Assembly (NCBI RefSeq): GCF_900445235.1
Contig: NZ_UFSM01000001.1
Coordinates: 4,913,501 to 4,977,500, forward strand
Reading direction: 5' to 3'
Origin: Aminobacter aminovorans
Lineage (GTDB): Bacteria; Pseudomonadota; Alphaproteobacteria; Rhizobiales; Rhizobiaceae
DNA length: 64,000 nt
A program made the translations under genes and the position numbers. Positions 3,913 to 63,257 of the stretch are shown one piece after another. Positions within the stretch are counted from its first letter, which is position 1. Each line of letters opens with the position of its first letter. The notes under the pieces are model-generated. The model was given only the letters and a program-made list of their open reading frames with translations. It was not told where the DNA came from and ran no database searches.

Positions 3913-3989
3913 TGGCGCGCCCGAAAGGATTCGAACCTCTGACCCCCAGATTCGTAGTCTGGTGCTCTATCCAGCTGAGCTACGGGCGC
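3913..3989 (-). tRNA. tRNA-Arg (anticodon ACG), copy A
   Basis: A complete cloverleaf can be folded on the minus strand. The acceptor stem is GCGCCCG/CGGGCGC, the T-loop TTCGAAT, and the anticodon stem CCAGA/TCTGG with loop CTACGAA, giving anticodon ACG. The 3' CCA is encoded. ACG, after A34-to-inosine editing, reads CGU/CGC/CGA arginine codons. It is identical to the second copy about 506 bases away. Confidence 0.97.
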
Positions 3990-4418: not shown

Positions 4419-4495
4419 TGGCGCGCCCGAAAGGATTCGAACCTCTGACCCCCAGATTCGTAGTCTGGTGCTCTATCCAGCTGAGCTACGGGCGC
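4419..4495 (-). tRNA. tRNA-Arg (anticodon ACG), copy B
   Basis: Identical in sequence to copy A over all 77 positions including the encoded CCA, on the same strand. About 100 bases of 5' flank are also recognisably related to those of copy A, so the pair arose by a local tandem duplication of tRNA plus promoter. Confidence 0.97.
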
Positions 4496-38551: not shown

Positions 38552-38603
38552 GCGCAGGGACGGCCCTGCGCTTCCCCGAAAAAACCGGCTGGGACGACCC
38601 GCC
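38552..38603 (+). promoter_or_regulatory. Guanidine-II (mini-ykkC) riboswitch upstream of sugE
   Basis: Two hairpins carry the class-defining ACGR tetraloops. P1 is GCGCAGGG (38552-38559), loop ACGG (38560-38563), CCCTGCGC (38564-38571). P2 is GGCTGGG (38587-38593), loop ACGA (38594-38597), CCCGCC (38598-38603). The spacing of 15 bases fits. The sugE ribosome site GGAGCG lies a few bases downstream. It could pair with CGCTTCC around 38569-38575, with one bulge, when no ligand is bound. Binding guanidinium to the two loops should switch translation on. Confidence 0.92.
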
Positions 38604-42143: not shown

Positions 42144-43556
42144 TTACCGCATCGCCTCGACGAGGCCCTTATCGGGAAAACACGTGGCCGCACGGCCATT
42201 CTTCGCCTGCCAGTCGCCGATCGACCGGCGCGTCTTGAAGCCCGGTAGACCGTCGGCTCCGCCGACGTCGTAGCCAAGCTTTTCCAGCCCGCGCTGCATC
42301 AAGGCCACATCGGAGCGGTAGAGCCCGTCGACCTTGCCCCAGCTACCGGCAAAACGCCGGTCGCCTGACGCGATCCGGTCGGCGCCATGGCCGATGAACA
42401 GCGCGTAGACATCGCTCTCATTATATTCCTTGAGCACGTAGAAATTCGGCGTGACGATGAAGGCGGGGCCGTTCCGCCCGGCCGGCATCATCAGAAAACC
42501 TTCGGCCCGTGCCTCATTCTCAGGGAACGGCTTGCCGCCGACCCGGGTTATGCCCATCGCGGCCCAGTCCGCTATCTTCTTACCCTTGTCGGGGCCCTCC
42601 AGCGCGCAGGTAACATTCTCCGGCACCGACACCTCGAAACCCCAGTCGCGGCCCTTCAACCAGCCATAGTGGACGAGATAGTTGGCGATCGAGGCCAGGG
42701 TGTCGGGTGTCGAGTTCCAGATGTCGGCGCGGCCATCGCCGTCGAAATCCACGGCATGCTGGAGGAACGAGGTCGGCAGGAACTGCGGCTGACCAAGCGC
42801 GCCGGCCCAGGACGAGCGCATCGCCTTGCGACTGACCAGCCCGCGCTCGACCATCTCGAGGCCGGCCAGCAGTTCCTTGCGGAACATCTCCTTGCGGGTG
42901 GCCAGGAACGCCTTGGTGCCCAGCACCTCGAAGGCATCATAGGGCATCTTGGCCGCACCGAAGCCGGACTCCCGGCCCCAGATCGCCAGCACGACGCCGC
43001 CGGGCACGCCGAAACGCTTCTCGATCGAGGCGAGCGTCTTGGCGTTGGCGCCAGCACGGCTGCGTCCGCCTGCTGTGACCGCACCGAGCGTCTTCTCCGA
43101 GAAATAGTTGCCAGGCGAGCCGAACTCGGCCTGGTGCTGCTGCTTCGGCGTCTTCGGCTTTTCGCCCGGCAGCACGAGGTCGGGCAGCTTGAGATTGGGT
43201 CTTACGCCATCGAAGGCCGCTTCAAAGGTCGCCCTGGAGATGCCCTTGGCCTTGGCTTCCGGCCACAGGTCCTTGGTGAGCCAGGCCTGGAACTGATCGT
43301 CGATCTTCGCGGCGGCGGCGGGGACGGCGAATACGAAGCACGCAGCAAGCAGGATTGATTTGAGGAACAGCGCTCTAGGTTGCCCGCCTCTGTCCTGCCG
43401 GACATCTCCCCCACAAGGGCGGAGATTGCCAGCGGCTATGCCGCGGCTCTTCCGCCAGCGATGAAGACTGGCGAAGATCGGCGTAAGGGCTGATCTCCCC
43501 TCTTGTGGGGGAGATGTCCGGCGGGACAGAGGGGGGCAACGTAGAGCGCTTGTCAT
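42144..43556 (-). CDS. MltB-type lytic murein transglycosylase with repeat-derived N-terminal insertion
   Basis: It cleaves peptidoglycan glycan strands. The catalytic SLT_2 domain shows the Glu in IWGRESGFG, GALGQPQFLPTSF and DFDGDGRADIWNS; a C-terminal peptidoglycan-binding domain covers LMQRGLEKLGYDVGGADGLPGFKT. ATG 43556 has the excellent site AGGGAGG and follows recR by 25 bases, so it is the native start. After five codons (MTSAL) the frame runs through a palindromic element, adding about 58 residues, before the signal sequence FLKSILLAACFVFAVPAAAA. The element-free protein would start MTSALFLKSILL and look like a normal exported enzyme. Confidence 0.88.
   Translation of the reverse strand: MTSALRCPPLSRRTSPPQEGRSALTPIFASLHRWRKSRGIAAGNLRPCGGDVRQDRGGQPRALFLKSILLAACFVFAVPAAAAKIDDQFQAWLTKDLWPEAKAKGISRATFEAAFDGVRPNLKLPDLVLPGEKPKTPKQQHQAEFGSPGNYFSEKTLGAVTAGGRSRAGANAKTLASIEKRFGVPGGVVLAIWGRESGFGAAKMPYDAFEVLGTKAFLATRKEMFRKELLAGLEMVERGLVSRKAMRSSWAGALGQPQFLPTSFLQHAVDFDGDGRADIWNSTPDTLASIANYLVHYGWLKGRDWGFEVSVPENVTCALEGPDKGKKIADWAAMGITRVGGKPFPENEARAEGFLMMPAGRNGPAFIVTPNFYVLKEYNESDVYALFIGHGADRIASGDRRFAGSWGKVDGLYRSDVALMQRGLEKLGYDVGGADGLPGFKTRRSIGDWQAKNGRAATCFPDKGLVEAMR
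43369..43550. repeat. Long palindromic (MITE-like) element inserted in frame in a coding region
   Basis: Near-identical inverted arms of about 50 bases face each other. Both begin, read inwards, with AGCGCTCTA, then GTTGCCC, CCTCTGTC, CGCCGGACAT or TGCCGGACAT, CTCCCCCACAAG. The unpaired centre (about 43420-43495) differs. The whole unit of about 182 bases has no coding capacity of its own beyond the open frame it shares with the transglycosylase. A related unit lies at 62963-63150. Confidence 0.88.
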
Positions 43557-43581
43557 CCAGCCTCCCTGCAAGCCAATTACG

Positions 43582-44187
43582 TCAAAACACGGTCCGCGAC
43601 TTGAGGGCCGCCGACAGCGTGCCTTCGTCGAGATAGTCGAGCTCGCCGCCAACCGGCACGCCATGCGCCAGTCTTGTCACCTTGATGTCGAAGCCGGAGA
43701 GCTGGTCGGTAAGATAATGCGCCGTGGTCTGGCCCTCGACGGTGGCATTGACCGCCAGGATGACCTCGCTCACCCCGCCCTCGGCGATGCGGGTCACAAG
43801 TTGCCTGATGGTCAGCTGGTCGGGGCCAATGCCGTCGAGCGGCGACAACGTGCCGCCGAGCACATGGAACTTCGCGTTCATCGCACCGGCCCGCTCCAGC
43901 GCCCAGAGATCGGACACGTCCTCAACGACGATGATGGTGGTGGGGTCGCGGCGCGGATCGGTGCAGATCATGCACGGATCCGAGGTATCGACATTGCCGC
44001 AGGTCGAGCATACCCGCACCTTGTCGACCGCTTCGCCCATGGCGGCGGCCAGCGGCGCAAGCAGCTGTTCCTTCTTCTTGATCAGGTGAAGGGCAGCACG
44101 GCGGGCCGAACGCGGCCCGAGCCCCGGCACCTTGGCCAGAAGCTGGATCAGGCGTTCGATCTCGGGACCGGCGATTCGCTTCGACAT
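43582..44187 (-). CDS. recR: Recombination protein RecR
   Basis: Part of the RecFOR pathway that loads RecA at gaps. The 201-residue protein has the N-terminal helix-hairpin-helix ([17 protein letters not shown]), the [16 protein letters not shown] zinc finger, the Toprim domain ([29 protein letters not shown]) and the end LARGVP-like [22 protein letters not shown]. The frame extends to 44259, but ATG 44187 matches the family start. It belongs with dnaX-ebfC upstream on the same strand, separated here by two inserted genes. Confidence 0.96.
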
Positions 44188-44277
44188 GGAAGCGATATAA
44201 GACGTGTAGGGAACGGTGAGTAGTGAATAGTGAAGCGGGAAGCCGCCTGGTTCCTCCATCCACTACCGACTATTCGC

Positions 44278-48460: not shown

Positions 48461-48584
48461 CCGCCCCGTTCGCTCGCCCGTTCGTATTGGCGCCCCTGCC
48501 TCGACCGCGCAGGGCCGATTCCGCGAAACGAGTTTCGCCCGCACGGCGTAACGCCGTCAATGACGCGGAGAAGGGCGAAGAGGC

Positions 48585-48680
48585 GGGAGGCTGGAACAAT
48601 GACCCGTTCCGGGCTCGTTAGGGCTGCTTCCTTCCGGACCTGACCCGGTTGGCGAGTGGATCGTCCACCACCAACCTCCC
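48585..48680 (-). ncRNA. ffs: Bacterial signal recognition particle 4.5S RNA
   Basis: The minus strand folds into a single long hairpin closed by GGGAGGTTGG / CCAGCCTCCC. Near the apex is the universal SRP motif GGTCAGGTCCGGAAGGAAGC, containing the Ffh-binding loops and GGAA tetraloop. The 96-nucleotide length is right for the small Gram-negative form. It lies next to dnaX, as in other rhizobia. Confidence 0.95.
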
Positions 48681-62876: not shown

Positions 62877-62962
62877 GAGACATTCTAGAGACTGCTCCCG
62901 CCATGCGGGGTTGGTGACGCGCGGCGGCGCTCGTCAGGCAAATCTACAACGCCCCGTTTCTT

Positions 62963-63150
62963 CGCTCCCCTCTGGCCTGCCCGGCCATCTCCCCCCACAA
63001 GGAGGGAGATTGGTCTCGCCCACGGCCGCGCCTATCCCGCGAGGCTGCAGAAACAAGCCTTGCGGCTTTCGGGATCAGCCGGGCCACTGATGAAGGCGTG
63101 ATCTCGCCGGTTGTGTGGGAGATGGCCGGCATGCCAGAGGGGGGCGGGAA
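62963..63150. repeat. Second copy of the palindromic element, intergenic
   Basis: The 381-base gap after ghrA is filled mainly by this unit. Inverted arms carry CCCCTCTGGC, TGCC(C/G)GGCCATCTCCC, CACAA and GAGAT, read inwards from both sides. Size (about 185 bases) and arm sequence resemble the element at 43369-43550, but with GGCCAT where that one has GGACAT. Nothing else is recognisable in the gap. Confidence 0.75.
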
Positions 63151-63257
63151 GGATCACCGCGCGCCCGAATTGCCCCCAAATAGAGGCGGCGAGAAAAGAC
63201 AATGAGCGTGGGGAATTTCCCCGCCTCGTGGTGCTCGATATCGCTTGAAGCAACGCG

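What the first reader, a model, noticed from the sequence alone, without database searches (positions are those of the whole stretch)
43369..43556. Palindromic element inserted in frame just after the start codon of a lytic transglycosylase
The native start (ATG 43556, AGGGAGG site, 25 bases after recR) is followed after five codons by a palindromic element of about 182 bases. The reading frame stays open across it, then resumes with a clean signal sequence (FLKSILL...). Joining the two sides gives MTSALFLKSILL, a normal leader. The host protein thus seems to carry about 58 repeat-encoded, Arg/Pro-rich residues before its signal sequence. In-frame palindromic insertions are known as Rickettsia palindromic elements; I know of no described rhizobial case in a signal-peptide region. 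A stable mRNA hairpin of about 50 base pairs there may also affect translation.
Basis: partly seen in the sequence, partly recalled or inferred. Interest (0 to 1): 0.82.

Follow-up and report, generated by a model that had tools for sequence, protein, structure and literature searches.

The report
Mobile palindrome inside signal-peptide leader
A roughly 180-base dispersed palindromic DNA repeat sits in frame between the start codon and the export signal of a cell-wall enzyme in a soil bacterium, and related bacteria show the same repeat coming and going at this spot and inside several other genes with the reading frame kept open.

Summary
In an Aminobacter-like genome a palindromic element (43369-43550, minus strand) lies in frame between the native ATG of an MltB-type lytic transglycosylase and its signal peptide. 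It belongs to a dispersed rhizobial repeat family. Of 79 parsed recR-mltB junctions, 35 carry a full-length element here. In the 33 that can be analysed the mltB frame has no stop, against 20 of 66 open for the other two same-strand frames. Where arm spacing could be measured (30 rows) it is 108, 105 or 111. Presence needs at least 18 changes on the gene tree, frame class 5, core orientation 9. The window copy and L040 have no ATG/GTG/TTG between the native ATG and the mature domain, so with standard starts the repeat is translated. The family is also in frame in a TPM-domain protein, CobG, CobN and a hydantoinase; in three families with apparent signal peptides (MltB, TPM, an alpha/beta-hydrolase-like protein) it lies just before the signal core. 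Best reading: a nearly neutral in-frame mobile palindrome whose roughly 60 residues are discarded with the signal peptide. It works like Rickettsia palindromic elements. No expression data were available; a regulatory role of the hairpin is not excluded.

The parts
43582..44187 (-). recR, the gene directly upstream (start at 44187 read by eye; the mechanical ORF begins at 44259)
   Evidence: NCBIfam TIGR00615, 1.2e-64
43561..43567 (-). Shine-Dalgarno-like AGGGAGG in the 25-base recR-mltB gap
   Evidence: sequence
42144..43556 (-). mltB-type lytic transglycosylase, 470 aa, native ATG at 43556
   Evidence: Pfam SLT_2 and PG_binding_1; NCBIfam TIGR02283
43369..43550 (-). palindromic element, AGCGCT..AGCGCT, 182 bases, encoding about 60 residues in frame (class B frame: RCPPLSRRTSPP...RQDRGGQP)
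43362..43426 (-). 3' arm of the inverted repeat (gene orientation)
43493..43557 (-). 5' arm of the inverted repeat (gene orientation)
43308..43367 (-). apparent signal-peptide core and cleavage region FLKSILLAACFVFAVPAAAA, before KIDDQF (judged by eye; no signal-peptide predictor was available)
   Evidence: translation; a loose small-x-Ala pattern before the mature part in 34 of 34 element rows and 44 of 44 others
62950..63160 (.). second copy of the element family in the window (long type), between predicted genes

Best explanation
The element is a palindromic, presumably non-autonomous mobile repeat of a rhizobial family, fixed in frame between the native start codon and the signal-peptide core of mltB. 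Translation starts at ATG 43556 and runs through the palindrome, giving about 60 extra Arg/Pro-rich residues in front of the hydrophobic core. The whole extension would be removed when signal peptidase cuts before KIDDQF, so the mature enzyme is unchanged and the insertion is close to neutral. The GC-rich element has few stops and several open frames, so it can land, be lost, flip or be replaced at such tolerant sites, and in-frame outcomes survive. Shown: position, open frame, family membership, orthologue pattern, absence of other standard in-frame starts. Inferred: translation in vivo, export with the long N-region, removal by signal peptidase, near-neutrality, and mobility.
For: Own-genome family: 53 half-site matches against 1 for the reversed control. 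Of 79 junctions 35 carry a full-length element; 33 of 33 analysable ones are stop-free in the mltB frame, against 20 of 66 for the other two same-strand frames over the same stretch, element plus flanks. Arm spacing in 30 measured rows: 27 at 108, two at 105, one at 111; six non-genic short-type copies of the own genome span 123, 124, 124, 124, 125 and 126 bases between half-sites (from; mltB copy 124), so other lengths do occur outside genes. Native start kept in 33 of 33, SD-like in 28 of 33; residues before the hydrophobic core median 71 with (n=33) and 14 without (n=43). WIN and L040 have no later in-frame ATG/GTG/TTG before the mature domain. The element's centre shows no third-position excess (.367/.415/.301) while the signal region does (.392/.262/.468). 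Same placement before an apparent signal peptide in the TPM protein (5 of 10 genomes) and an alpha/beta-hydrolase-like protein (L181, P0122). In frame mid-protein in CobG (8 of 10; identity), CobN and a hydantoinase.
Against: No expression, proteomic or export data. The other five frames of mltB copies are open in 88 of 160 cases, and 51 of 144 frames in non-genic copies, so one open copy alone is weak evidence. Rows are related. Class A copies carry an in-frame ATG in the right arm, and in L025 a transposase gene splits the element while the mltB ORF stays open behind internal starts, so internal initiation is possible in class A. One element-free row, L075, has no native start by the same rule. 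182 bases is not a multiple of three and the empty allele was not found. The structure model has low confidence (mean pLDDT 52) and says nothing on the extension. No target duplication or transposase was identified, so mobility rests on distribution.
Confidence: 0.7

Rival explanations
1. The element is not translated: it is an extended 5' leader, and MltB starts at a codon inside or after the element.
For: All class A rows have an in-frame ATG in the right arm; in 8 of 28 of them GAGG lies five bases before it. L025 keeps its mltB ORF open although a transposase gene separates it from the native start. PMC3733652 (section 15 read) argues this for many N-terminal REPs.
Against: No ATG, GTG or TTG in the window or L040 between the native start and the mature domain. 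Zero stops upstream of the class A internal ATG in the analysable rows. Native start retained, SD-like in most.
Confidence: 0.12
2. The insertion was kept because the mRNA hairpin, beginning at about the third codon, lowers or tunes translation of a potentially lytic enzyme.
For: Very stable fold, z -12.2; the one element-free orthologue folded, L007, shows none (z 0.27, 113 of 200 shuffles as stable). Arms stay largely complementary in 27 rows (window plus 26 orthologues); most pairs hardly vary, but column 29/122 has AT 11, TA 6, GC 5 and 5 other combinations.
Against: The same family sits mid-gene in CobG and CobN and between genes, 44 of 79 rows lack a full-length element, and arm complementarity can come from replacement by other copies or template switching.
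Confidence: 0.12
3. The window's mltB is a decaying gene whose export is broken by the insertion, tolerated because paralogues exist.
For: Three further matches to the enzyme lie in the same genome, 33-38% identity.
Against: Intact domains, intact frame, cleavage-like pattern kept, and a full-length element in 35 of 79 junctions.
Confidence: 0.05
4. Chance palindrome or assembly artefact.
For: None found.
Against: Some 30 places in the genome and the same arrangement in separately sequenced species.
Confidence: 0.01

Closest known systems
Rickettsia palindromic elements (RPE)
   Same: Palindromic repeats of 105-146 bp found in frame inside protein genes as well as between genes (PMC2229807, parts 1 and 2 of 3 read); some at the N-terminus and expressed (PMC3733652, section 15 read); PMC10969869 passages.
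   Different: Rhizobiales hosts, GC-rich, roughly 150-210 bp; sequences were not compared. Copies in three different frames of the element are found in genes. Here there is same-site turnover in front of an apparent signal peptide.
Yersinia YPAL/RU-2 and ERIC in-frame fusions
   Same: MITE-like repeats translated in fusion with host ORFs; a YPAL copy partly forms a predicted signal peptide (PMC2229807).
   Different: YPAL supplies hydrophobic residues of the signal; here the element is hydrophilic and lies in front of an existing signal peptide.
Rhizobium-specific intergenic mosaic elements (RIME)
   Same: Repeats of rhizobial genomes with conserved sequence and secondary structure (passages of PMC2573895). 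Likely the same broad family, but that is recall only.
   Different: Described as intergenic; the defining paper is not held, so sequence identity could not be checked.
Intragenic GTAG/CGTC REPs
   Same: Palindromic repeats in ORFs, some at the N-terminus; recB copies at about the same site in two Xanthomonas species (PMC3733652). Some copies here end in CTACGTTG..CAACGTAG (L124), so a GTAG is at the end; noticed, not tested.
   Different: REP units are short; here single long palindromes.

Membership tests
In-frame protein-coding palindromic repeat (the kind of RPE) | Dispersed palindromic repeat with copies both between and inside genes | tested here: met
   31 of 33 fetched regions surveyed in G000: four copies inside genes in frame, the rest judged intergenic or partial
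In-frame protein-coding palindromic repeat (the kind of RPE) | Genic copies keep the host frame open | tested here: met
   33 of 33 analysable mltB rows; CobG 8 of 10 and TPM 5 of 10 genomes carry it, without stops
In-frame protein-coding palindromic repeat (the kind of RPE) | Element-containing protein is made | not testable with these tools
   No expression data
Rickettsia RPE | Sequence homology to an RPE family | not tested
   No RPE sequence was compared
RIME | Match to the published RIME sequences | not testable with these tools
   Defining paper not held
RIME | Restricted to rhizobia | tested here: inconclusive
   52 of 72,556 plasmid records match at E 1e-8, all of Rhizobiales genera; chromosomes of other groups were not searched
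MITE | Terminal inverted repeats | tested here: met
   Arms of 65 nt, 88% complementary
MITE | Target-site duplication and a matching autonomous transposon | tested here: inconclusive
   AGCGCT at both ends is itself a palindrome; no clean empty allele. Terminus CTACGTTGCCCC with up to 1 mismatch: 12 hits against 11 for the reversed control; of 7 exact hits 6 are in known copies, and the seventh lies near another remnant with no transposase-like ORF noticed between them

The most novel reading that the evidence does not exclude
The stretch between the start codon and the signal-peptide core is a safe harbour for mobile palindromes: inserted residues are cut off with the signal peptide, so in-frame insertions there are erased at the protein level. 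The rhizobial element family has many open frames, which lets it use this and other tolerant sites repeatedly, flip its core and switch frames without killing the host gene.
Probability: 0.35. Interest if true: 0.75.

Novelty: new variant of a known kind. Interest (0 to 1): 0.57.

Why it matters
In-frame palindromic elements are best documented in Rickettsia, and many N-terminal cases elsewhere were judged possibly untranslated (PMC3733652). This locus gives natural class B alleles with no other standard start codon, plus dozens of element-free, partial and flipped alleles in rhizobial species, so the question can be tested directly. It also shows that public CobN and MltB proteins of Rhizobiales carry repeat-encoded segments that can mislead annotation, alignment and structure work.

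Tried and rejected
Rejected or unresolved: a known RNA family (no Rfam match at the element at gathering scores). A single insertion inherited without change: against the tree counts. Amino-acid-level selection on the element's centre: no third-position excess. Source of the window copy: about equally close to the mltB elements of L013 and L010 and to paralogue L124 (0.82-0.85), so vertical descent or re-insertion is undecided. Autonomous partner: terminus search gave nothing. Structure prediction: low confidence, not used. ORFs that run into elements in G000 at L116, L117, L118, L126, L134, L138 and L139 were judged by me to be mechanical 5' extensions; this is a judgement, not a test. Weak points: gene calls in the survey rest on ORF length and codon composition; core-orientation labels are unsure for L005 (tie), L016, L039 and L041; L025 was labelled A+ by hand; tree method 'quick'; class B assigned by eye; partial copies count as 'none'; the spacing test leaves out L066 and L069 (not measured), L025, L035 and L074.

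Full report
What is in the window. On the minus strand recR (TIGR00615) ends at 43582, followed by 25 bases with AGGGAGG and the ATG of an mltB-type gene at 43556. The 470-residue product has SLT_2 and PG_binding_1 domains and matches TIGR02283. Within the first five codons the frame enters a palindrome with arms 43362-43426 and 43493-43557, 65 nt, 88% complementary; the folded RNA has -146.3 kcal/mol and z -12.2. It leaves it at FLKSILLAACFVFAVPAAAA-KIDDQF. There is no other in-frame ATG, GTG or TTG before the mature domain. Signal peptides in this report are judged by eye.

It is a repeat family. A DNA search of the own genome gives 58 matches, many of them halves or the two strands of one copy. 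A half-site pattern gives 53 matches against 1 for the reversed control. I fetched 33 regions and surveyed 31; two more places with remnants (2610988, 2611863) were looked at later. Four copies lie in genes in frame: mltB; a TPM-domain protein, between MTLS and the core AVLALLILLFAAPAFAA; CobG (TIGR02435); and a hydantoinase A/B protein between two domains. The others were judged intergenic or partial; gene calls used ORF length and codon composition, so the survey is approximate. In plasmid records the element matches 52 of 72,556, all of Rhizobiales genera.

Orthologues at the same place. From 80 named loci plus the window, 79 junctions could be parsed (L045 and L076 failed); 35 have a long segment with the element and 44 do not. 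L025 (transposase gene inside the element) and L035 (N run) were set aside. In the other 33 the mltB frame has no stop, whereas the two other same-strand frames are open in 20 of 66 cases over the same stretch, which includes flanks. Over the element alone the own frame is open in 32 of 32 rows without N, the other five frames in 88 of 160, and in 24 non-genic copies of the own genome 51 of 144 frames are open. The element is thus rather open by nature, but the host frame is kept without exception among analysable rows. Arm spacing is 108 in 27 of 30 measured rows, 105 in two and 111 in one; six short-type non-genic copies in G000 span 123 to 126 bases between half-sites, three of them 124 like the mltB copy (coordinates). 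Two reading frames occur at mltB: class A (CPAGHLP..GEMSGRTEGG, with an in-frame ATG in the right arm) and class B (PPLSCRTSPP..RQDRGG; window, L010, L013, L039, L040). The TPM and hydrolase-like copies use the third frame.

Turnover. On a quick ML tree of recR plus mature mltB (79 rows), presence or absence needs at least 18 changes (16 forced by starred branches), frame class 5 and core orientation 9, the last two counted among element rows (orientation labels, a few uncertain). Presence is still clustered (0 of 500 shuffles as low), so inheritance plays a part. The counts cannot tell gain from loss. Partial copies are seen, for example in L011, L012, L072 and L090. Among the best 120 of 6240 homologous proteins, 10 carry element-like peptides at the N-terminus by pattern and 110 do not.

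Coding signature. In class A rows (27 rows, 130 close pairs) differences at codon positions 1/2/3 are: left arm .071/.077/.060, centre .367/.415/.301, right arm .022/.095/.106, signal region .392/.262/.468. The centre is not held to an amino-acid sequence; only openness is kept. The native start is retained in 33 of 33 element rows (30 ATG, 2 GTG, 1 TTG), SD-like in 28. Residues before the hydrophobic core have a median of 14 in 43 rows without and 71 in 33 with the element; L075 had no native start. A loose small-x-Ala pattern before the mature part is present in all 78 rows tested.

Other genes. In ten genomes of the genus the TPM protein carries the element in 5; of the other five I viewed G001, G002 and G006 (G006 keeps a short in-frame remnant) and judged G008 and G009 from where the alignment starts. 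CobG carries it in 8 of 10 and lacks it in G008 and G009. CobN of G005 carries two copies and that of G007 at least one (identity). A search with a CobN element region found 205 proteins; the 120 listed all have PF02514 and at least one element-like motif by a permissive pattern. They are named mostly Mesorhizobium, Aminobacter and Rhizobium; in R. leguminosarum CobN two inserts lie near residues 203-261 and 815-873, in Mesorhizobium near 200-250 and 541-590. A hydrolase-like protein (P0122; L181 with domain scores just under the curated cut-offs) again has it before an apparent signal peptide.

Mechanism. The simplest account is translation from the native ATG through the palindrome, export through the intact signal peptide, and loss of the repeat-encoded residues with the signal peptide. 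Internal initiation is possible for class A but not with standard codons for the window. A regulatory hairpin is compatible but not needed, because the family also sits in mid-gene positions.

Known or new. In-frame palindromic or MITE-like elements are known for Rickettsia, Neisseria, Yersinia and enterobacteria (PMC2229807, parts 1-2 of 3 read; PMC10969869, passages, no occurrence of 'rhizob'), and N-terminal intragenic REPs with doubtful coding status are described in PMC3733652 (section 15 and passages read); its list of target ORFs is a supplement that I did not see, so rhizobial REP cases of another family may be in it. PMC5082802 (passages) describes intergenic Bradyrhizobium REPs of other sequence. 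My literature searches showed me no report of in-frame copies of this element in rhizobia; the library is open access only and I read few of the listed papers. RIME is the probable named relative, from recall; its defining paper is not held.

Noticed in passing
window 38552-38602 +: Guanidine-II (mini-ykkC) riboswitch, 36.6 bits.
   Followed up: no
window 62950-63160: Second, long-type copy of the palindromic element, between predicted genes.
   Followed up: partly
window 48583-48679 -: Bacterial small SRP RNA.
   Followed up: no
window 3916-3989 and 4422-4495 -: Two tRNA genes with identical scores about 500 bases apart.
   Followed up: no
L025 718-1689 +: Transposase gene (DDE_Tnp_1, DUF772) inside the left arm of the mltB element in Mesorhizobium sp. 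L2C084A000: a natural test of internal initiation.
   Followed up: partly
P0151, P0160, P0183, P0220: Rhizobium CobN proteins with two element-encoded inserts, the second at a site different from Mesorhizobium CobN.
   Followed up: partly
L183 (G000:C1 2610988 and 2611863): Two short remnants of the element, one reading GGGGCAACGTAGAGCGC, about 900 bases apart in the region next to cobG.
   Followed up: partly
L157 upstream of the TPM gene (G001): A different repeat (CCCCTCACCC..CTCTCCCCG type) occupies the same upstream region.
   Followed up: no
G008, G009 (two genomes of the genus): Few matches to the TPM-element query (6 and 1, against 21-33 in the other eight genomes) and no element in CobG.
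   Followed up: no
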